A stretch of 47,440 bases of DNA, from assembly GCA_021373175.1 (NCBI GenBank), contig JAJFTE010000065.1, forward strand, positions 1-47,440, in the 5' to 3' direction. The position numbers and the translations under genes were made by a program. Source of the DNA: Actinomycetes bacterium. GTDB taxonomy: Bacteria; Actinomycetota; Coriobacteriia; Anaerosomatales; Anaerosomataceae. Positions 8,540 through 40,975 of the stretch are shown piece by piece (positions within the stretch are counted from its first letter, which is position 1; every line of letters begins with the position of its first letter). The notes beneath the pieces were generated by a model. The model saw only the letters and a list, made by a program, of their open reading frames with translations. It made no database searches and was not told where the DNA came from.

Positions 8540-8862
8540 ACACCGCCACACAGCTCAGCGATCTTCCGGCGTGGGCGGTTGTGGTTCTTGGCCTGCTGGC
8601 GCTCACGGAGCTTGCGCTCGACATCTACGCGCTCGTGAGACTGGCGCGTACGCCCGACGAGCGGCTCGTCTTCGGCAAGAAGTGGCCGTGGGTCCTGCTC
8701 ATCCTGCTCGTCAACCTCATCGGTGCGATCCTGTTCCTTGTGGTCGGGCGCAAGCCGGAAGTTGTCGCTGACCCGCTGCGCGAGACGCCGGATTCGCCGG
8801 TCGGGAGCGGGAGTGTGAAGCATGCCGCGGACGTGCTGTACGGTCCGAGGGATGGCGAATGA
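8536..8862 (+). CDS. PLDc_N-domain small membrane protein
   Basis: A 108-residue protein with two membrane helices (about residues 12-34 and 48-68) around a conserved polar loop, RLARTPDERLVFGKKWPWVLL. This is the phospholipase-D N-terminal (PLDc_N) module, often found alone as a small membrane subunit beside ABC exporters. The C-terminal tail (about 75-108) is hydrophilic. The ATG overlaps the previous stop and has AAGGAG nine bases upstream. It overlaps the ATPase gene at its 3' end, so it is probably a partner of that exporter; the exact role is unknown. Confidence 0.75.
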   Translation: MNTATQLSDLPAWAVVVLGLLALTELALDIYALVRLARTPDERLVFGKKWPWVLLILLVNLIGAILFLVVGRKPEVVADPLRETPDSPVGSGSVKHAADVLYGPRDGE

Positions 8863-9790
8863 CGTGAGCGCCCATCCGATCGAGCTTACGGGGCTGACGA
8901 AGGTATACGGGTCGAGCAAGGCGCTCGACGGCATCGATCTCGTTGTGTCCGAGGGCTCGGTCTACGGCTTCCTCGGACCTAACGGCGCGGGCAAGACGAC
9001 CACACTGCGCATCCTGAGCGGCCTGGCGCGGCCGACCACCGGAAGAGCGCGCGTCTTGGGCGTGGATGTGGGGGCGGCCGGCAACGATATCCGCGCCCGC
9101 ATCGGCTTTTTGCCCGACGTCCCCGGCTTCTATGAGTGGATGACCGCCGAGGAGTTCCTTCGCTTCGCCGGCAGGCTCTTCGGCCTGCCGGCCGCGGTCC
9201 TTGACGAACGCGTGGAAGCGCTCCTCGACCTGGCGGGACTTACCGGCGTCACCACGAAGGTGGGCGCGTACTCGCGAGGCATGAAGCAACGTCTCGGTGT
9301 CGCCCAGGCGCTCATCAACGCGCCGGCGCTTCTCATGCTCGACGAGCCCACATCGGCGCTCGATCCGATCGGCCGCAAGGAAGTGCTCGACATGATCGCC
9401 TCGCTTGCTGGTCGCACGACGGTCTTCTTCTCCACGCACATCCTGTCGGACGTGGAGCGTGTGTGCGACACGGTCGCGATCCTCGACCGCGGACGCGTCG
9501 TCGTACAGGCGCCCGTCGAGGAGCTCAAGAACCGCTACGGTGCGCGAAAGGTCATCCTCGAAGTGACCTGCGGTACCGAAGCGCTGTCGCGGCGGTTCTC
9601 GGCGGAGTCGTGGGTGACGGCTGTTGCATGCGAGAGCCGTACTCTCACGCTGACGGTGAGCGATATAGAAGCGGCACGGCTCGCGATCCCTGCCGCCGTG
9701 GTGGCCGAGAAGGCCGGGCTCGTCCGGCTCGAAGGTGGCGAAGTCTCCCTTGAGGAGGTCTTCGTCGGGCTGGTCGGGGGTGCGCAGTGA
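8852..9790 (+). CDS. ABC exporter ATP-binding protein
   Basis: Cytoplasmic ATPase of 312 residues for a drug- or lipid-type ABC exporter. Walker A is GPNGAGKTTT, the Q-loop region is GFLPDVPGFYEWM, the signature is a variant YSRGMKQRLG, Walker B is LLMLDEPTSALD and the switch His is in STHILSD. The C-terminal 80 residues form the extra domain typical of the CcmA/NatA-like exporter group. The signature serine-glycine is preserved but the usual LSGG is SRG. It overlaps the upstream gene by 11 bases and the permease start at its stop. Confidence 0.93.
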   Translation: MANDVSAHPIELTGLTKVYGSSKALDGIDLVVSEGSVYGFLGPNGAGKTTTLRILSGLARPTTGRARVLGVDVGAAGNDIRARIGFLPDVPGFYEWMTAEEFLRFAGRLFGLPAAVLDERVEALLDLAGLTGVTTKVGAYSRGMKQRLGVAQALINAPALLMLDEPTSALDPIGRKEVLDMIASLAGRTTVFFSTHILSDVERVCDTVAILDRGRVVVQAPVEELKNRYGARKVILEVTCGTEALSRRFSAESWVTAVACESRTLTLTVSDIEAARLAIPAAVVAEKAGLVRLEGGEVSLEEVFVGLVGGAQ

Positions 9791-10560
9791 TGCGCGGCTT
9801 CGGTGTGTTTCTCGGCAAAGAGGCTCGTGAGATACTTCGCACCTGGCGCATCTGGGCGCTTCCCGGTCTTGTTGTGTTTCTTGCGCTTACGGGGCCGGTG
9901 ATCGCGAAGCTCACACCCGAGCTCTTGAAGTCGATGTCCGGTACCGCGGGCATGGGCGGGGTGGTGGTCACGCTGCCCAAGCCGACGTGGCAAGACGCCT
10001 ACCTCCAGTGGAGCAAGAACCTCACGCAGATGATCACGTGGGTGCTCGTCGTGATGGCGGGCGGTATGGTCTCGGGCGAACGGAAGAGCGGAACAGCGGT
10101 TCTCGTGCTCACGAAGCCGATAAGCCGCTCGGCCTTCCTGCTGGCGAAGTTCATCTCGAACGCAGGGCTCGTGGCGCTGGCGGCGGTTCTGGGTGCGTTC
10201 AGCACGTGGGCGGTCACCCTCGGCGTCTTCGGCGAAGCGCCGGTTCGCATTATGGTCGAGGCCACTGCAGTGTGGCTAACCTTCGCGATCGTGCTGGTGG
10301 CCGTGCTGACGTTGTTTTCAGCGGTGGTCGATTCGCGGCTTGGCGCGACGTTTTTGGGGTTCGGGGTGTTGGTGGCCTTCACGATCGCGTCGCTGTGGGG
10401 GCCTGCCGCCGATCTCAGTCCGGCCGGTCTCGTGAACGCGCCGAACGCGGTGATCTCGGGCACCGGCGGCCGCCTGCTCTGGCCGCTCGTTACGAGCGCC
10501 GTTGCGACGTTGCTCTTCGTGGCTGGCGGCATGTGCGCGTTCAGCCGCAAGGAGCTTTAG
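9790..10560 (+). CDS. ABC exporter permease (ABC-2 type)
   Basis: Integral membrane subunit of about 256 residues paired with the upstream ATPase. It has an N-terminal amphipathic segment (FGVFLGKEAREILRTWRIW), a first helix at about 18-38, a large outside loop up to residue 85, then five clustered helices after GERKSGTAVLVLTKPISR. That last motif, with ERKSGT and KPISR, is typical of ABC-2 permeases. The ATG at 9790 overlaps the ATPase stop; a GTG at 9787 is an alternative. The gene is the last of the operon and converges on the rubrerythrin-like gene. The substrate is unknown. Confidence 0.88.
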   Translation: MRGFGVFLGKEAREILRTWRIWALPGLVVFLALTGPVIAKLTPELLKSMSGTAGMGGVVVTLPKPTWQDAYLQWSKNLTQMITWVLVVMAGGMVSGERKSGTAVLVLTKPISRSAFLLAKFISNAGLVALAAVLGAFSTWAVTLGVFGEAPVRIMVEATAVWLTFAIVLVAVLTLFSAVVDSRLGATFLGFGVLVAFTIASLWGPAADLSPAGLVNAPNAVISGTGGRLLWPLVTSAVATLLFVAGGMCAFSRKEL

Positions 10561-33353: not shown

Positions 33354-33682
33354 GACTGCCTCCTATCAGTGGCTAGTCGCGACCTGCGCGTTCTGCAGGT
33401 CGCCCTCCCGGCTCGTCCGAGTCCCGTGCACACAACATCGATTCGAGCCTGATCTGACTCGGATTCGAAACGTATGTACCCTCAAGGTCACGAGTTCCAT
33501 CAGCGTTTCCAGTTGTGCCCAGTTCTTTGGCTGGGAAGCACGTCGAGTCGCCCGCGCTGTGGCGACCCGCGATCTTCGGCAGTCAATCATGGTTGTGTCT
33601 GGTACCGTTCGTGTCAGTGCGGTGACGTACCGTGTTTGGGCACACTGTTCGCATGGTACTGTGCTACAGGTCAATCGATTGG
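33354..33682. other. Divergent intergenic region between xylF-like and mltG genes
   Basis: No gene is evident in these 329 bases. GATTCGA occurs twice, 18 bases apart, near 33441-33466. GGTACC and GTACC flank a 20-base spacer near 33600-33630. Either could be regulatory, but neither has a recognisable protein partner. I found no strong paired -35/-10. Confidence 0.35.
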
Positions 33683-34804
33683 ATGCGTATGAGGCGAACA
33701 GAGCGAAGCCGGGAGATGCGCGCCCGCACGGCACAGCCCGTTCCTCGCGAGCGTCACAAGCGGGGTCGTGGTGCTGGGCGCGTCATTGGTGCCGTTGCGC
33801 TGCTGCTTCTGGTAGTCGCGCTGATCGTGGTCGGTATCGGCTGGAGCATGCTCACGCGGCCAGCCGTTGATGTTGCGCACGGTAGACCGATCGAGGTCGT
33901 GGTCGCACCGGGTTCCTCGACAGCGTCGGTAGCCGAGACCCTCGCTCAGGCCGGCATTGTCAATAATGCTCTCATGTTCAGAGTCCGGTCTCGGCTCTCA
34001 GGGTCCGACGGGAAGCTTAAGGCCGGAACGTACACCCTAGCCGCCGGGATGCCGTACGACCGAGCGCTCGAGAAGCTGATCGCTGGTCCCGACATCGTGT
34101 ACTACGACGTTCCAATTCCCGAGGGGTTCACTGTCCGGCAGATCGCTGAGCGCTTCGCCGCGCGTGCGAAGGTGCCTGAAGACGAGATGCTCACGCTCGT
34201 CACGAGCGGGGCGGGGGAGTTCTCGGCCGATCATCCATATCTCAAAGACGCCTACGGATCTTCGCTCGAGGGTTACCTGTTCCCGGCCACGTACCGGGTG
34301 AAGGAGGGTGCTTCGGCACGCGATGTCGTTGAGATGCTCCTCGATCAGTTCGACAAGCAGATAGCGACCGTCGACCTGTCGTACGCGAAGTCGAAGAACC
34401 TGACGCTCACCGATGTGGTCGTCATCGCATCGGTGCTCGAGCGAGAGACGAAGATCCCGAAGGAGTTCCCGCTTGTCTCCTCGGTCATCTACAACCGGCT
34501 GGCGAAACCGATGCGGCTGCAGTTGTGTGCGACGGTCCTGTACAAGATGCCGGCCGGGACCACGAAGCTCAGCGACGCCGACCTCAAGAAGGACAGCCCG
34601 TACAACACGTATCTGCATGACGGGCTTCCTGCCGGGCCGATCAGCAATCCCGGGCTTGCGGCGCTCAAAGCGGCTGCGGCTCCGGCCAAGACGAGGTACT
34701 ACTACTACGTCTTGACGGGTAAAGACGGCTCTCAGACATTCACTTCCACCTACGACGAGTTCCTCAAGGCCAAAGAGGTCTATCACCAGGTCTATGGCGA
34801 CTGA
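33683..34804 (+). CDS. mltG: Endolytic murein transglycosylase MltG
   Basis: Membrane-anchored lytic transglycosylase (YceG family), thought to release nascent glycan strands. With the start at 33683 it is 373 residues; a start at 33689 or 33716 is possible and none has a strong ribosome site. It has a basic cytoplasmic tail, one membrane helix (about 34-55) and a LysM-like region, then the catalytic domain with SLEGYLFPATY (194-204), catalytic Glu253 in ASVLERET and the MRLQLCATVLYK and GLPAGPISNPG motifs. It precedes corA by about 60 bases. Confidence 0.92.
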   Translation: MRMRRTERSREMRARTAQPVPRERHKRGRGAGRVIGAVALLLLVVALIVVGIGWSMLTRPAVDVAHGRPIEVVVAPGSSTASVAETLAQAGIVNNALMFRVRSRLSGSDGKLKAGTYTLAAGMPYDRALEKLIAGPDIVYYDVPIPEGFTVRQIAERFAARAKVPEDEMLTLVTSGAGEFSADHPYLKDAYGSSLEGYLFPATYRVKEGASARDVVEMLLDQFDKQIATVDLSYAKSKNLTLTDVVVIASVLERETKIPKEFPLVSSVIYNRLAKPMRLQLCATVLYKMPAGTTKLSDADLKKDSPYNTYLHDGLPAGPISNPGLAALKAAAAPAKTRYYYYVLTGKDGSQTFTSTYDEFLKAKEVYHQVYGD

Positions 34805-34867
34805 CCTGGCTTGCCGCTTTGCTATGCTTGCGGCAGAGCAGGTCGACATTCTCGGCAGGGGGAGACG

Positions 34868-35821
34868 ATGGCGACGAGCATGATCGTCCGGTGGATCGAC
34901 GCCGGTGTCCTGCGTTCGGACGAGCTGGGTGCGCTACCTGCGGAGCTTGCAGGTCCGGTATGGGTGGATGTTCTTGGGGCCGACGAAGAAGCCCTCGCGG
35001 CTATCGCCGCACGCTTGAAGCTGCCGCCGCTCGCCATCGAGGACTGCCTGCATTTTCCGCAGCGGCCGAAGATCGACGTCTATCCCGATGTGACGTTTCT
35101 GATCTGGCTCTTGCCTCAGCTGGTCACCGGTGGCGGGGTCATCTCCTCGGAGTTGGACATCTTTCTTGGCCACGAACATCTCGTGACCATCCACGCCGAG
35201 CCGGTCCAGGCGATCGACCGGGTCGGCGCGCATGCTCAGCAGTATCTCGATCGCGGGGCCGAGTGGACGTTGCACGCGATCATCGATGCGGCGGTCGACC
35301 AGGTCTTTCCTTTGGTCGAGACGCTGTCCGATCAACTTGAGGAACTTGAGGACCTGATGCTTTCGGACGCGCGACCCGCGTACCTTCAGCGTCTCTACGC
35401 CGCCAGACGGTCGCTCGTCCAGCTCCACAAGGTCGTTGGTCCCGAGAGGGACGTGATTCGCGGACTCGCCCGGCTCGAAGCGTTCGTGGAACCAGCGGCC
35501 TACATGTATTTCCAGGACGTCGGGGACCATCTGGCCAGGGTGGCCGACGAAGTCGACACGTACCGGGACGTCGCGTCGGGCACGATGGACATCTATCTGT
35601 CGTCGGTGAGCAACCGCATGAATGCGATCATGAAGCAGCTGACGATAATCGCGACCATCTTCATGCCGCTGACGCTCATCTCGGGCATATACGGGATGAA
35701 CGTCACCAAAGGAATGTGGCCCCCGGTAGGGGCCGGCTGGGCGTTCGCGGCGATCATCGGCCTTATGGGCAGTATCTCGCTGTTGATGCTGTGGTTCTTC
35801 AAGAGGAGAGACTGGTGGTAG
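34868..35821 (+). CDS. corA: CorA-type divalent metal transporter
   Basis: A 317-residue CorA-family channel for Mg2+ (or Co2+/Ni2+). It has a large acidic N-terminal cytoplasmic domain (to about residue 255), the first membrane helix (QLTIIATIFMPLTLISGIYG), the signature Gly-Met-Asn at 276-278 and a second helix ending KRRDWW. AGGGGGAG lies upstream of ATG 34868. Its stop overlaps the next gene by seven bases, suggesting coupled translation with the phospholipid synthase. Confidence 0.93.
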   Translation: MATSMIVRWIDAGVLRSDELGALPAELAGPVWVDVLGADEEALAAIAARLKLPPLAIEDCLHFPQRPKIDVYPDVTFLIWLLPQLVTGGGVISSELDIFLGHEHLVTIHAEPVQAIDRVGAHAQQYLDRGAEWTLHAIIDAAVDQVFPLVETLSDQLEELEDLMLSDARPAYLQRLYAARRSLVQLHKVVGPERDVIRGLARLEAFVEPAAYMYFQDVGDHLARVADEVDTYRDVASGTMDIYLSSVSNRMNAIMKQLTIIATIFMPLTLISGIYGMNVTKGMWPPVGAGWAFAAIIGLMGSISLLMLWFFKRRDWW

Positions 35822-36408
35822 AAGAAGGCGCTGAAGAGGTTCACTCCGGGATGTACTCGGTGGCGAACCTCGTCACGGTTCTACGGCTCCTGCTCGTGCC
35901 GTTTTTCTTCGCGCTGCTCATCCGCGACTCAGAACGTGCCAGACATTCCGCGTTCGCGCTCTACGTGCTCGCCGCGTCCACCGACTGGATCGACGGGCAG
36001 ATCGCCAGGCGCACGCATACCGTGACGCGTGTGGGCAAGGTCATAGACCCGCTGGTCGACAGGCTGTTGCTGGCCTCCGGTGTGATCGGCCTTTACATCA
36101 TCGGTGAGCTACCGGTGTGGATTCCTGCTGTGCTTGTCCTACGGGACGTGTATTTGCTCTACGGTTCGTACGTGCTCGAACGGCATCGTATCGTCTTGCC
36201 AGTGACGTACGTCGGCAAGGTCACCACGGCCGTGCTCCTGACAGGGTTCTCGTCGCTCATAGCGGGGTGGCCGGTCATCTCTGGAACCGTCGCCGGGTTG
36301 TGGCTGGTCTACGCCGGCGCGGTGCTCTCGCTCGTCACGGCCGTGAAGTACACGTTCAGCGCCAGGAGTGCACTCAACGAAGCGAACGCTCGACTCCGTT
36401 CGGTCTAG
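35815..36408 (+). CDS. CDP-alcohol phosphatidyltransferase (PgsA-like)
   Basis: Membrane enzyme that transfers a phosphatidyl group from CDP-diacylglycerol to an alcohol, probably glycerol 3-phosphate. The 197-residue protein has about six helices and the complete family motif D(x2)DG(x2)AR(x8)G(x3)D(x3)D: DWIDGQIAR then G...D...D in VGKVIDPLVD. GTG 35815 has AAGAGGAG six bases upstream and overlaps the corA stop; ATG 35851 is an alternative. No usual phosphatidylserine or inositol signature is visible, so the exact alcohol is inferred. Confidence 0.88.
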   Translation: MVEEGAEEVHSGMYSVANLVTVLRLLLVPFFFALLIRDSERARHSAFALYVLAASTDWIDGQIARRTHTVTRVGKVIDPLVDRLLLASGVIGLYIIGELPVWIPAVLVLRDVYLLYGSYVLERHRIVLPVTYVGKVTTAVLLTGFSSLIAGWPVISGTVAGLWLVYAGAVLSLVTAVKYTFSARSALNEANARLRSV

Positions 36409-36439: not shown

Positions 36440-38944
36440 GTGAAGGCAGTCATCATGGCAGGCGGCGAGGGCACGCGTCTGCGTCCGCTCACAAGCACGC
36501 GTCCGAAGCCGATGGTGCCAATTGTCAACCAGCCGGTGATGGAGCACATCCTCGGACTCGTGAAGCATCACGGGATCACGGAGGTCGTGGCGACGCTCGC
36601 GTTCATGCCGCAGGTAATCGAGGACTACTTCGGCGATGGCGAGGAGTGGGGAACGAACATCACCTACGCGGTAGAGGAGTCTCCACTCGGCACAGCGGGA
36701 TCCGTGAAGAATGCCGAGGAAGCGCTGCGCAGCGAACCGTTCGTGGTGATATCGGGCGACGCGCTCACCGACATCGATCTGACCAGCGTGATCGCGTTTC
36801 ATAACTCGCACAACGGCCCTGTTACCATCGCGCTTAAGCGTGTCCCGGACCCCCTCGACTTCGGTGTCGTGATCACAGATGAGACAGGCAAGGTACAGCG
36901 GTTCCTCGAGAAGCCGACATGGGGCCAGGTGTTCTCGGACACCATCAACACCGGCATCTATGTGCTCGATCCGGTCGTGTTCGACTTCATTCCCGAGGGT
37001 AAAGCCTACGACTTTTCCTCAGAGCTGTTTCCCGCGTTGATGGCCGCCGGACACGACCTGTACGGTTTCGAGGTCGACGGGTACTGGTGCGACGTCGGCA
37101 GTCTGGAGTCCTACGTGGCGGTTCACCGGGATATCCTCGACGGGAAAGCGATGCTGTACGTGCCCGGAGCACGGGCGCGCAACGATGTCTGGATCGGCAA
37201 GGGAGCAGATATCGATCCGGGCGCGGTCATCGGCACGAAGGTTGTGATCGGCGAGAACACGCGCGTTCGGGCAGGTGCGCGCGTGGACGACTATACCGTT
37301 ATCGGCGACAACTGCCTGGTGGGGTACGACACGGTGATCGAGCACTCGATCGTGTGGTCGGACTCGTTCATCGGCGCCGGCTCGGAAGTGCGGGGCGCGG
37401 TCGTCTGTCGCGGCGTCGATATCCGGGCCCGCGCGCGGCTCGAGCCTGGCGCTGCCATCGGCGACTCGACGGTCGTCGGCCACGGCGCGATCGTCGGTAA
37501 CGACGTCCAGGTCTACCCGTACAAGCGCATCGAGGCCGGTGCGGTGGTCACGTCCTCGCTCATCTGGGAGAGCAAGGGCATTCGCTCGCTGTTCGGCACG
37601 GACGGCGTTGCCGGTCTCGTGAACATCGACGTCACGCCCGAACTGGCGTTGCGCCTTGCTCAAGCATTCGGAAGCATACTGCCGAGCAAAGCGCACGTCG
37701 TTGTGAGTCGCGACTCAAGCCGCGGTGCCAGGATGATCAAGCGAGCGATCATTGCCGGGCTGAACTCGACGGGCAATCATGTACGCGACTTGCGGGTCGC
37801 CTCCCCCGGGATCACACGTTTCACGACGCGCGACACGCGCTGTGAGGGCGGCGTTCACGTGTGCGTCTCGGCGAAAGACCCACAGACCCTCGAGATCCAC
37901 TTCTACGACAAGGCCGGCATCGATCTGGCGCCGTGGATCGAGAAGAAGGTCGAACGGCTGTATTTCCGGCAGGAATTCAGGCGGGCGTTCTTCGACGAGA
38001 TCGGCGAGATACTGTATCCTCCCCGCGCGCTTGAGTACTACATCGCGGGGCTGATGGAGGCCCTCGATGGGGGAGCCCTCATGTCGAACAGACAGACGAT
38101 CGTCGTGGACATGGGCATGAGCCCCGCGTCTTTTGTCTTACCGCAGGTCGCGGGAGGCTGGGATGTGGAGCTGATCGCGCTTCGGCCCTTTGTCGACTCG
38201 GAGCGCGCCATGTCAACGTCGCCCGCGCGCGACGAGGTGCTCGGCCAGCTTGCACGGTCCATGGACCTTTTCCAGGCGGATCTTGGGCTATCGATGGACG
38301 TGACCGCCGAGCGGATAACGCTCGTGAGCGCATCCGGCGGCGTGCTCGACGCAGACACCGCTTTGCATGCCATGGCATATCTTTGGAGCCACACCGATGC
38401 GAGCGACCGCTCCCTTGCGGTGCCGTACACCGCATCTCGCGTTATCGAGCAGATCGCCGGGGCTACGGGTCACGGCGTATTGAGGGTCGGGACATCAAGA
38501 CGCTCATTGTCCGCCGCTGCGTTGCGCCCCGAAGTAGGTTTCGCCGGTTCGCAGACGGGCGGATTCGTCTTCCCGGCGTTTCTCGCGTCATACGACGCCA
38601 TCATGAGTCTGGGGATGACCCTTCGCATGCTCGATCGGATCGGCACGTCGCTTGACGAAGTCGTCGCTGCCCTGCCGCCGTTTTACCTTCGCCGTCGGCA
38701 GGTCTTCTGCCCGTTCGCGCGCAAGGGGGCTGTGATGCGGCAGATGGCCGAGCTGGGCCAGCATCACGAAGTGGAGATGACCGAGGGGGTTCGCATCGTC
38801 GAGGACGACGGTTGGGCACTCGTGCTTCCTCACGCGACCGATGCCATCGTCGAGGTCTTCACCGAAGGCGACTCCGCCGATGCGGCGGATACGATCGCGG
38901 ACAGGTACGTGGCGCTCGTCGAGGCCGCTATCGGCGGGGAGTAG
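36440..38944 (+). CDS. Sugar-1-phosphate nucleotidyltransferase / phosphomutase-like fusion
   Basis: An 834-residue protein in three parts. Residues 1-235 are a nucleotidyltransferase ([25 protein letters not shown], the G-D of [11 protein letters not shown]). Residues about 245-360 are left-handed helix repeats ([11 protein letters not shown] and similar). Residues about 380-834 resemble phosphoglucomutase/phosphomannomutase. The mutase half is degenerate: TASHNP is VSAKDP (476-481) and the metal loop DGDADR is DVTAER (620-625), so it is probably inactive and structural. Related fusions are annotated as mannose-1-phosphate guanylyltransferase in Actinobacteria, but the sugar is not provable here. 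The start is GTG 36440, with GGGAAGGG about ten bases upstream. Confidence 0.88.
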
Positions 38945-38967
38945 CGCGTTCGACGAGCTTCCTTCGT

Positions 38968-38994
38968 GGTAACGCCGGTAACGCCGGTAACGCC
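38968..38994. repeat. Three tandem 9-base repeats
   Basis: GGTAACGCC occurs three times in perfect tandem (38968-38976, 38977-38985, 38986-38994) in the gap before the VanW-like gene. It may be a short polymorphic tract or a protein-binding array. Confidence 0.8.
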
Positions 38995-39030
38995 CGCGTG
39001 TCACACCTGCCGTCCGAGCGCCGCGTCCTG

Positions 39031-39036
39031 TATACT
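39031..39036 (+). promoter_or_regulatory. -10-like element for the VanW/G5 gene
   Basis: TATACT at 39031-39036 is a good -10 element about 38 bases before the start at 39074. No convincing -35 element is 16-18 bases upstream. Confidence 0.4.
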
Positions 39037-39073
39037 TTCACGACGTTTGGCTACCAGCGCGCAGAGGATGAGC

Positions 39074-40975
39074 ATGCCCGAGAATACCGAGCCCGCCGCA
39101 CCAGCCGAGGACGACGCGACCGCCCGCAGGGTCGCGGCGCACGTCCGCGGCCGCTCGCATCGCGCGGAGCAGCGAGGCCTGGCGGGATGGCTCGCGGGCA
39201 TGTCCGTCCGTGCTCGCTGGGTTGTGATCGCGGCAGGCGCGCTTGTTGCTGTCACGTTGCTCGCTGTTGGCGTGGACATCGCGTCTTCCGCCGGTCGCGT
39301 CCATCCGGGCGTGCGGGTCGCCGGCGTCGCCGTCGGCGGCATGACGCGCATCGAGGCGGCGAGAAGGATCGACTCGGGCATCAAACCGTTGCTCGAGCGA
39401 CCCGTGAAGGTGAGCCTTGACGCCGAATCGTGGGATCTCACGGCAGCCCAGATCGGCGCATCTGTCGATGCGACACGGCTGGCGGCTGCGGCCTACGGGA
39501 TCGGTCGCGGCACCGACGTGGTGTCGACGATCTCAGAACGATTCTCGGCATGGTTTGGTCGGCAGGACGTCGCCTTGGCGGTGACGCCTGATGAAGTTCT
39601 GTTGAGCGGCGTGCTCGGGGACATCGACAAGGCCGTGGGGGTCGCGCCCGTAGACGCATCGGTAGAGGTTTCAAGCACGGCGGTCCGGTTGGTGCCGGCC
39701 ACACAAGGCAAGGGGATCGACAGGACGGTAGCCCGAGGCAACATTCTGACGGCTTTCGCGTCGAACGATCGCTCTGTCAGCCTCGCGCTCGTGCCGAGGC
39801 CAGCCTCTATCACTGAAGACGGCGCCCGGGCTGCGTACGACACAGCACGCAAGATGGTGAGCGCGCCGCTCACGCTCACCTACGACAAAAAGCGATGGGA
39901 GGTGCCGGCTGCGACCGTCGGCGGGTGGCTGGCGTTCCGCTCGGCGGGTGCCACCGAAACTGCCGGAGCCGTCGCGGGCACTCTTGAGTGCTATCTGGAC
40001 AGCGCCGAGGTCTCGGCGAGCGTCGTGCCGCTTGTGAAAGAAGTCGGCAAAGTCGCACAGGACGCCTCGTTCAAGGTCTCATCAGGCACCGTGAGTATTG
40101 TGCCGGCCCAAGATGGCCTCGGCGTCGACGCCGAGGACCTTGCGACACGCTTGATGCAGGCGCTCACCGGAAGCGGGGAGCGTGTCGTCGAGCTGCCCAT
40201 GAAGCGCGTAGCGCCTGCGATCACCACTGACGCCGCAAAGGGCATGGGCATCACGACACGCTTGTCGACGTACACAACGTCGTATGCCTCGAGCAACACG
40301 CCGCGGGTGAACAACATCCACCTGCTTGCCGATGCCCTCAACGGAACGCTCGTCGCACCGGGTGCCGTGTTCTCGTTCAACGGCACCATCGGCCCGAGAA
40401 CCGCGGCGAAGGGCTACCAGGAAGCCAACGCCATCGTCAACGGCAAGCTCGTCCCCCAGCTCGGCGGCGGGGTCTGCCAGATCGGGACGACGATCTTTAA
40501 CACGGTGTTCTTCTCGGGACTTCCCGTGGTCGAGCGTCACAACCATTCGCTGTATATCAGCCACTATCCGAAGGGGCGCGACGCGACAGTATCGTGGGGC
40601 GGGCCGGACTTCCAGTTCCGAAACGATACGGGCAACTGGGTGCTCATCGCCACTTCGTATTCGAACTCGACCGTCACCGTCTCGCTGTACGGGACCACGA
40701 CCGGCTACAAGGTCGCGTACTCGACCGGCGCGTTCACGAACACGGTTGCCTTCCCGGTCCGTGAGATCAAAGACGCCACACTGCCGAAGGGAACCAAGGT
40801 GGTGGAGGAAAAGGGCGTGAGCGGCCGGAGCATAGTCGTCACTCGTACGGTGACCAAGAACGGCGTCGTCGTCCACAAGGACAGCTTCAAGTCGGTGTAC
40901 AAGCCAGCCGAAGAGGTCGTTCGGGTCGGGACCAAGGTGAGCGCGCCGTCGACGCCGCCGACTTCGACGCCGTAA
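39074..40975 (+). CDS. VanW-family, peptidoglycan-associated G5 protein
   Basis: A 633-residue cell-envelope protein with an N-terminal membrane helix (about 48-70), two peptidoglycan-binding-like repeats (PF12229 type), a VanW domain and a G5 domain. The VanW part has FSFNGTIGPRTAAKGYQEA, LGGGVCQIGTT and GLPVVERHNHSLYISHYPKG; the G5 part has SGRSIVVTRTVTKNG and SFKSVYKP. ATG 39074 has AGAGG six bases upstream; ATG 39068 is too close. Despite the name, VanW proteins are widespread and this gives no evidence of vancomycin resistance. The PGM-like fusion ends about 130 bases upstream. Confidence 0.88.
   Translation: MPENTEPAAPAEDDATARRVAAHVRGRSHRAEQRGLAGWLAGMSVRARWVVIAAGALVAVTLLAVGVDIASSAGRVHPGVRVAGVAVGGMTRIEAARRIDSGIKPLLERPVKVSLDAESWDLTAAQIGASVDATRLAAAAYGIGRGTDVVSTISERFSAWFGRQDVALAVTPDEVLLSGVLGDIDKAVGVAPVDASVEVSSTAVRLVPATQGKGIDRTVARGNILTAFASNDRSVSLALVPRPASITEDGARAAYDTARKMVSAPLTLTYDKKRWEVPAATVGGWLAFRSAGATETAGAVAGTLECYLDSAEVSASVVPLVKEVGKVAQDASFKVSSGTVSIVPAQDGLGVDAEDLATRLMQALTGSGERVVELPMKRVAPAITTDAAKGMGITTRLSTYTTSYASSNTPRVNNIHLLADALNGTLVAPGAVFSFNGTIGPRTAAKGYQEANAIVNGKLVPQLGGGVCQIGTTIFNTVFFSGLPVVERHNHSLYISHYPKGRDATVSWGGPDFQFRNDTGNWVLIATSYSNSTVTVSLYGTTTGYKVAYSTGAFTNTVAFPVREIKDATLPKGTKVVEEKGVSGRSIVVTRTVTKNGVVVHKDSFKSVYKPAEEVVRVGTKVSAPSTPPTSTP

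What the first reader, a model, noticed from the sequence alone, without database searches (positions are those of the whole stretch)
36440..38944. Fusion protein with an apparently dead phosphomutase half
The nucleotidyltransferase is well preserved, but the phosphoserine loop (VSAKDP for TASHNP) and metal loop (DVTAER for DGDADR) are altered in the mutase-like half. Over 400 residues are kept despite loss of the reaction, suggesting an allosteric, structural or binding role.
Basis: partly seen in the sequence, partly recalled or inferred. Interest (0 to 1): 0.5.

Follow-up and report, generated by a model that had tools for sequence, protein, structure and literature searches.

The report
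Sugar-nucleotide enzyme with dead mutase half
A bacterial enzyme that makes an activated sugar carries a second, mutase-shaped half whose catalytic residues were lost long ago yet which has been kept in every relative examined, usually beside a membrane-lipid gene, so it probably binds or steers something rather than catalysing the reaction databases credit it with.

Summary
Confirmed and extended. ORF 36440-38944 (834 aa) is an intact sugar-1-phosphate nucleotidylyltransferase plus beta-helix, fused to a complete four-domain alpha-phosphohexomutase fold that lacks its catalytic equipment. At ten catalytic positions, 33 of 33 intact mutases keep all ten; 95 of 95 fusion relatives keep 0-3, and the window keeps two. 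The nucleophile column holds Ser477 in the window, but Ser in only 56 of 95 relatives.

The fusions form one clade (100/100). Fusions with intact mutase halves exist but group with stand-alone mutases, so the architecture arose at least twice. The dead half is under purifying selection and has fixed new charged residues. Just upstream, same strand, lies a CDP-alcohol phosphatidyltransferase in 60 of 68 evaluable Actinomycetota loci. Fourteen loci encode an intact mutase directly downstream. The window's genome has separate GDP-mannose genes, so the database name (bifunctional GDP-mannose pyrophosphorylase/phosphomannomutase) is probably wrong for the mutase half and doubtful for the other.

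Most likely a catalytic nucleotidylyltransferase with a pseudo-mutase docking or regulatory module; ligand, partner and product are unknown.

The parts
36440..38944 (+). fusion gene, 834 aa, GTG start: nucleotidyltransferase + LbH + pseudo-alpha-phosphohexomutase
36440..37141 (+). nucleotidyltransferase domain (residues 1-234), catalytic motifs intact
   Evidence: Pfam PF00483 197 bits; GG-G-R, PKP, D107, D111, EKP, NTG, W216/D218 invariant or nearly so in 84 members
37172..37519 (+). left-handed beta-helix domain (residues about 245-360)
   Evidence: Pfam LbH_EIF2B and Hexapep; beta turns in the model
37580..38941 (+). pseudo-mutase half (residues 381-834), complete four-domain phosphohexomutase fold
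   Evidence: VIA Z 46.2, 443 aligned, rmsd 2.4 to T. kodakarensis PGM 9du5; phmmer E 1e-51
37862..37885 (+). loop 1, CVSAKDPQ (residues 475-482): Ser477 in the nucleophile column, His and Asn lost
38297..38314 (+). loop 2 (metal), DVTAER (620-625): D kept, D to T, D to E; E624 in 93 of 95
38543..38563 (+). loop 3 (sugar), AGSQTGG (702-708): Glu replaced by Ser
38825..38845 (+). loop 4 (phosphate), LPHATDA (796-802): Arg and Gly lost; P797 invariant in the family
35851..36408 (+). CDP-alcohol phosphatidyltransferase directly upstream, 31 bases before the fusion (ORF opens at 35716; a likely ATG is at 35851)
   Evidence: PF01066 121 bits; no promoter-like site found and no terminator-like site between the genes; same order in 60 of 68 evaluable Actinomycetota loci

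Best explanation
The protein is a working sugar-1-phosphate nucleotidylyltransferase whose C-terminal half is a pseudoenzyme: a full phosphohexomutase scaffold that no longer catalyses the 6-phosphate/1-phosphate isomerisation. Shown here (by sequence): the catalytic loops are lost across one clade, the half is kept under selection, it gained new invariant charged residues, and in Actinomycetota the gene usually follows a CDP-alcohol phosphatidyltransferase gene and sometimes precedes a true mutase gene. Inferred: the sugar-1-phosphate comes from a separate true mutase (the neighbour gene where there is one; in this genome probably the mutase gene beside manC); the pseudo-mutase acts as a docking or regulatory module that binds that mutase, a sugar phosphate or nucleotide sugar, or the phospholipid enzyme, and so controls or places the nucleotidylyltransferase for an envelope-lipid or glycolipid step.
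For: Catalytic positions 0-3 of 10 in 95 of 95 fusions, 10 of 10 in 33 of 33 intact mutases. NT motifs intact in 83-84 of 84. One clade, 100/100. dN/dS of the mutase half 0.05-0.19 against seven relatives, domain I most constrained (dS near saturation). Family-specific fixed residues K434, D450, R460, R515, E624, P746, K762, G763, M766, R767 where intact mutases mostly carry others. Fold retained, Z 46.2. CDP-alcohol phosphatidyltransferase upstream, same strand, in 60 of 68 evaluable Actinomycetota loci and downstream in none of 69. Intact four-motif mutase directly downstream, same strand, in 14 of the 62 Actinomycetota loci with at least 1300 bases of downstream sequence (rows, counted by eye). 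Own genome has intact GlmM, a second intact mutase, ManC and GalU. SCO1388, which the paper describes with the same two domains, contributes little GDP-mannose pyrophosphorylase activity (PMC5982138, passages).
Against: No ligand, partner or activity was measured. The model's domain arrangement is unsure (pTM 0.58) and the nucleotide loop is poorly predicted (residues 9-30 under pLDDT 50). CDP-alcohol linkage is absent in 18 of 18 evaluable loci outside Actinomycetota and 8 of 68 inside, so a lipid role cannot be general. Ser477 and D620 are still there in the window, and E624 is acidic, so metal or phosphate binding is not excluded. Linkage counts are of related genomes, not independent events.
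Confidence: 0.62

Rival explanations
1. The mutase half is only a structural or oligomerisation scaffold that holds the nucleotidylyltransferase in its active assembly and binds nothing small.
For: Fold kept while the pocket loops vary freely in many members, e.g. the Glu325 column is D, S, A, T or N; domains II-IV are less conserved than the NT domain.
Against: New charged residues are fixed at 95% or more; LbH domains alone usually assemble such enzymes (recalled); Glu in the third metal column in 93 of 95.
Confidence: 0.2
2. The half has been repurposed to a different phosphoryl chemistry (for instance a phosphatase or a different mutase) using the new residues around E624.
For: Ser in the nucleophile column in the window and 56 of 95, D or E at the first metal position in 80 of 95, Glu at the third in 93 of 95, plus new invariant Lys/Arg.
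Against: The nucleophile Ser is not conserved (A, G, V or T in 33 of 95); the phosphate-loop Arg is replaced (L, I, V or S in 92 of 95, 2 gaps, 1 not shown) and the second metal Asp is kept in only 15 of 95.
Confidence: 0.1
3. The protein is bifunctional as databases and PMC5982138 state, making sugar-1-phosphate and the nucleotide sugar in one chain.
For: Complete fold; a version of the same architecture with a full catalytic set exists by sequence (7 full-length genes in 251 genomes).
Against: 8 of 10 catalytic residues gone in the window, 7-10 of 10 in all 95; the intact fusions are a different lineage; 14 loci carry a separate intact mutase next door.
Confidence: 0.03
4. The half is a decaying remnant on its way to loss.
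For: The mutase half diverges faster than the NT half (mean p-distance 0.61 against 0.38).
Against: 53 of the 54 matches have no stop inside (G052 has one TGA; G052, G058 and G065 match only in part), and 27 of 61 genomes have full-length matches without stops; dN/dS well under 1 in every pair tested.
Confidence: 0.05

Closest known systems
SCO1388-type NDP-sugar synthase of Streptomyces coelicolor (KEGG K16881; that number's definition, bifunctional mannose-1-phosphate guanylyltransferase/phosphomannomutase, is recalled)
   Same: Same two domains as described in PMC5982138 (passages); Nonomuraea and Streptomyces plasmid homologues are about 40-43% identical over the full length; a synteny cluster of Streptomyces lists K08744 with K16881 (PMC13118837, one table passage; K08744 as cardiolipin synthase is recalled). 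SCO1388's own sequence was not fetched.
   Different: Described in print as apparently bifunctional; the family analysed here lacks the mutase site, and the mutant showed little contribution to pyrophosphorylase activity.
Archaeal-type phosphoglucomutase/phosphomannomutase (9du5, 1wqa)
   Same: Whole fold, 26-27% identity over 443-447 residues, Z 45-46
   Different: All four active-site loops degenerate; fused behind an NT-LbH enzyme
PGM5 (aciculin), inactive vertebrate phosphoglucomutase
   Same: Catalytically silent member of the mutase superfamily that is still kept
   Different: PGM5 keeps its active-site loops largely and still binds glucose-1-phosphate (PMC7761743, passages); here the loops are lost and the half is fused to another enzyme
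GMPPA-GMPPB complex (7d72)
   Same: Catalytic sugar nucleotidyltransferase paired with a silent relative of a pathway enzyme (function recalled; sequence match)
   Different: There the silent partner is a nucleotidyltransferase in a separate chain; here it is a mutase in the same chain
Intact NT-LbH-mutase fusions (L160-L166)
   Same: Same domain order and similar length
   Different: Catalytic mutase residues kept; their mutase halves group with stand-alone mutases, so that fusion arose separately

Membership tests
alpha-D-phosphohexomutase superfamily (fold) | four-domain fold | tested here: met
   Z 46.2, 443 residues aligned to 9du5 chain of 452
alpha-D-phosphohexomutase (active enzyme) | phosphoserine loop T/S-x-S-H-N-P | tested here: not met
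   CVSAKDP; Ser column kept, His and Asn lost
alpha-D-phosphohexomutase (active enzyme) | metal loop D-G-D-x-D-R | tested here: not met
   DVTAER
alpha-D-phosphohexomutase (active enzyme) | sugar loop G-E-x-S/N-G and phosphate loop R-x-S-G-T | tested here: not met
   AGSQTGG and LPHATDA
alpha-D-phosphohexomutase (active enzyme) | measured mutase activity | not testable with these tools
   needs protein
GlmM / archaeal GlmM (TIGR03990) | NCBIfam equivalog cut-off 439 bits | tested here: not met
   232 bits
sugar-1-phosphate nucleotidylyltransferase | GGxGxRL, PKP, EKP and metal Asp motifs | tested here: met
   83-84 of 84
mannose-1-phosphate guanylyltransferase | NCBIfam NF052502 cut-off 440 bits | tested here: not met
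   289 bits, best of 53 families
mannose-1-phosphate guanylyltransferase | GTP and mannose-1-phosphate specificity | not testable with these tools
   the genome has a separate ManC (TIGR01479, 477 bits against cut-off 373), so the need is already met
cardiolipin synthase ClsA (upstream gene) | NF053678 cut-off 240 bits | tested here: not met
   98.9 bits, close to pgsA at 96.3 (cut-off 109); a separate gene at C74 passes pgsA with 151 bits

The most novel reading that the evidence does not exclude
The pseudo-mutase is a sensor or docking module, built from a dead metabolic enzyme, that couples nucleotide-sugar synthesis to phospholipid (cardiolipin-type) synthesis in Actinomycetota: it would bind the true mutase, a phosphosugar or the neighbouring CDP-alcohol phosphatidyltransferase through a newly fixed charged surface, and the nucleotide sugar would decorate a lipid rather than feed GDP-mannose pools.
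Probability: 0.25. Interest if true: 0.7.

Novelty: new variant of a known kind. Interest (0 to 1): 0.5.

Why it matters
About half of a phylum-wide sample (54 of 119 genomes) carry this gene. A bifunctional name, recalled from KEGG and echoed for SCO1388 in PMC5982138, would put a phosphomannomutase into pathway reconstructions where none is encoded. The family gives a clean natural contrast: the same architecture evolved separately with a live and with a dead mutase half, so what the dead half does for the nucleotidyltransferase can be tested directly. The conserved lipid-gene neighbour offers a concrete, untested lead to the physiological product.

Tried and rejected
Rejected: single-copy decay (95 relatives degenerate, selection). 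Rejected: chance or sequencing error (30 loci from other assemblies). Rejected: descent from the intact fusion. I first took the intact fusion L144 as an ancestor, but its mutase half groups with stand-alone mutases; the ancestor of the degenerate half was presumably an active mutase, but not this fused one. Considered and dropped: that the organism cannot make mannose-6-phosphate. Type I PMI and bact-PGI_C were not found, but PF01050 lies in a ManC beside a mutase gene, so GDP-mannose synthesis is likely. The cross-count of type I PMI against fusion (6 of 54 fusion genomes have one) says little because type II was not counted.

Led nowhere: clustering of neighbours in loci without the CDP-alcohol gene shows no gene shared by most of them; the promoter and terminator scan gives no signal above shuffles; searches of the open-licence paper library for an inactive or degenerate mutase domain of this kind found none; a full prior-art claim would need subscription journals. 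PMC4686642 (passages) has no mention of SCO1388. The new charged residues could not be placed in space, as no coordinates are returned.

Rows dropped: L031 and L032 (N-terminal pieces), L034, L056, L057, L058 (second copies), L059, L145 and L147 (no fused mutase half seen), L157 (broken into two frames, left broken). L144 and L146 are the same genes as L160 and L166 and were counted under the latter names. Fourteen of the 53 other genomes (G006, G013, G018, G026, G028, G029, G041, G042, G046, G052, G058, G064, G107, G109) were not used for gene-neighbour counts. overlap; one search is the one counted. Its printed '9' for downstream mutases left out five whose stop-to-stop frame begins just before the fusion ends; the rows give 14 of 62, counted by eye.

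Full report
What is there. ORF 36440-38944 (+) encodes 834 residues without a stop: a nucleotidyltransferase domain (Pfam 197 bits), a left-handed beta-helix and a phosphohexomutase-like half. The genome is a 98.9% complete draft of 2.15 Mb. The closest loci come from Actinobacteria and Coriobacteriia MAGs, two titled Anaerosomatales (87 to 58% identity), more distant ones from other Actinomycetota and a Chthonomonadales MAG. A plasmid of Sulfuricurvum kujiense (Campylobacterota) has a 33% identical full-length copy.

The observation. HMMER aligns the mutase half without gaps in the key loops to archaeal PGM/PMM structures. All four loops are changed: CVSAKDP/TASHNPP, DVTAER/DGDADR, AGSQTGG/GGEENGG, LPHATDA/RASGTEP. 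I scored ten catalytic positions (numbering and role as in the P. aeruginosa enzyme, recalled: R20, S108, H109, K118, D242, D244, D246, E325, R421, S423). Thirty-three intact mutases (7 intact fusions, 23 stand-alone ones from the same search, the two of the window's own genome, one archaeal GlmM) keep 10 of 10. Ninety-five degenerate fusions keep 0 (13 of 95), 1 (27), 2 (52) or 3 (3). Two of the 95 (L156, L158), as well as L022 and L030, are cut by contig ends. The window keeps two: S477 and D620. In contrast the nucleotidyltransferase motifs are invariant in 83-84 of 84.

Selection. Against seven relatives the mutase half has dN/dS 0.05-0.19 and the NT-LbH part 0.05-0.18. Synonymous sites are close to saturation, so only the order of magnitude counts. 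Domain I of the dead half is its best conserved part. Thirty columns of the half are at least 95% fixed in the family. Some are scaffold residues shared with live mutases (F385, D425, D557, G616, G633, D719, W792, E809). Others are family-specific: K434, D450, R460, R515, E624, L642, P746, K762, G763, M766, R767. I read this as the mark of a new function, not of mere tolerance (inference).

Structure. AlphaFold2 on the 27-row alignment gives the mutase half mostly at pLDDT 80-95; the chain-wide pTM is 0.58, so the relative placing of the halves is unsure. The half matches T. kodakarensis PGM over 443 residues at Z 46.2, rmsd 2.4. The same lists include PGM5, the inactive vertebrate relative, which still binds glucose-1-phosphate (PMC7761743, passages).

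Origin. In a tree of 55 mutase domains the 36 degenerate ones (a chosen subset of the 84 then in hand) form one group (100/100; 100% of 200 bootstrap trees). The 7 intact fusions fall among stand-alone mutases and need at least two changes. So the loss is shared by one lineage found in several phyla, and the same domain order was built separately with a live mutase. Two rows (L054, L076) have long branches. Distances of the two halves of the degenerate fusion correlate at r = 0.89 over 82 members, as expected if the halves have stayed together.

Neighbourhood. Upstream on the same strand, 31 bases away, lies a CDP-alcohol phosphatidyltransferase. Across 69 Actinomycetota loci, 68 have at least 650 bases upstream. 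Of these, 60 have such a gene within 1.6 kb on the same strand, 47 of them immediately upstream; none of the 69 has one downstream. The eight without it are L110, L113, L114, L119, L120, L122, L124 and a Streptomyces plasmid copy, L055. In the other 19 loci (Sulfuricurvum, the Chthonomonadales MAG and genomes drawn from the latter's phylum) it is 0 of 18 evaluable. In S. coelicolor SCO1389 is a cardiolipin synthase using CDP-DAG (PMC4966929, passages); that SCO1388 and SCO1389 are neighbours follows from their numbers, and a table of PMC13118837 lists K08744 and K16881 in one synteny cluster (one passage). In this window the upstream gene scores about equally for ClsA and PgsA and passes neither cut-off, while another gene of the genome (C74) passes PgsA, so a cardiolipin-type role is plausible but not shown. 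Further downstream, many loci carry DUF881, DUF1290, FHA, MerR or BFN-domain genes.

A live mutase next door. In 14 of 62 Actinomycetota loci with at least 1300 bases downstream, the gene directly after the fusion on the same strand is a 465-516 aa mutase frame with all four motifs (L096, L098, L099, L101, L102, L104, L108, L109, L110, L112, L113, L125, L043, L047); L100 and L044 show the start of one at a contig end. In the window's genome GlmM (C72) and a second mutase beside a bona fide ManC (C51) are intact. So the mutase step can be provided in trans, and the dead half could pair with a live mutase, as silent and active paralogues do elsewhere (GMPPA-GMPPB, recalled).

Substrate. The best NCBIfam hit, mannose-1-phosphate guanylyltransferase, stays under its cut-off (289 of 440 bits). 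The genome already has ManC and GalU and a fourth NTP_transferase gene (C96) that looks like GlmU by eye. The S. coelicolor mutants of SCO1388 combined with sco3039 or sco4238 looked no different from the latter single mutants, and the authors conclude that SCO1388 contributes little to GDP-mannose pyrophosphorylase activity (PMC5982138, passages). A genome-wide screen lists its insertion among those with lower actinorhodin production (PMC6585502, passages). The product of the nucleotidyltransferase remains open.

Conclusion. The finding is real and family-wide. A catalytic nucleotidyltransferase carries a pseudo-mutase that most likely docks or regulates; the mutase label should be dropped. 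What it binds, and whether the lipid neighbour is its partner, is untested.

Noticed in passing
L160-L166 (G147, G264, G213, G232, G269, G199, G133): Separate full-length NT-LbH-mutase fusions with a complete set of catalytic residues, in 7 of 251 genomes searched; G147 and G133 also carry the degenerate fusion.
   Followed up: partly
L111, gene directly downstream of the fusion (8542-9978, +): A stand-alone mutase that is itself degenerate (TGCSNPP, DGDGDK, CDEEGG; the phosphate loop lost): possibly a second, independent pseudo-mutase.
   Followed up: no
L054, Sulfuricurvum kujiense plasmid pSULKU01: The plasmid-borne fusion is flanked by a phospholipase A and a patatin-like phospholipase gene, another lipid setting without the CDP-alcohol gene.
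   Followed up: no
same-class genomes: None of the 8 other genomes of the window's class in the sample has the fusion at E <= 1e-150, although 54 of 119 genomes of the phylum sample do; suggests loss in parts of that class.
   Followed up: no
G000:C51 (L002, L136): ManC (guanylyltransferase/isomerase) and an intact mutase gene lie next to each other in opposite directions, a likely GDP-mannose unit.
   Followed up: partly
window 33632-36408 and 38966-40975: MltG/YceG-like, CorA and CDP-alcohol phosphatidyltransferase genes run in the same direction before the fusion, and a VanW/PG_binding_4/G5 protein after it: an envelope-flavoured setting.
   Followed up: partly
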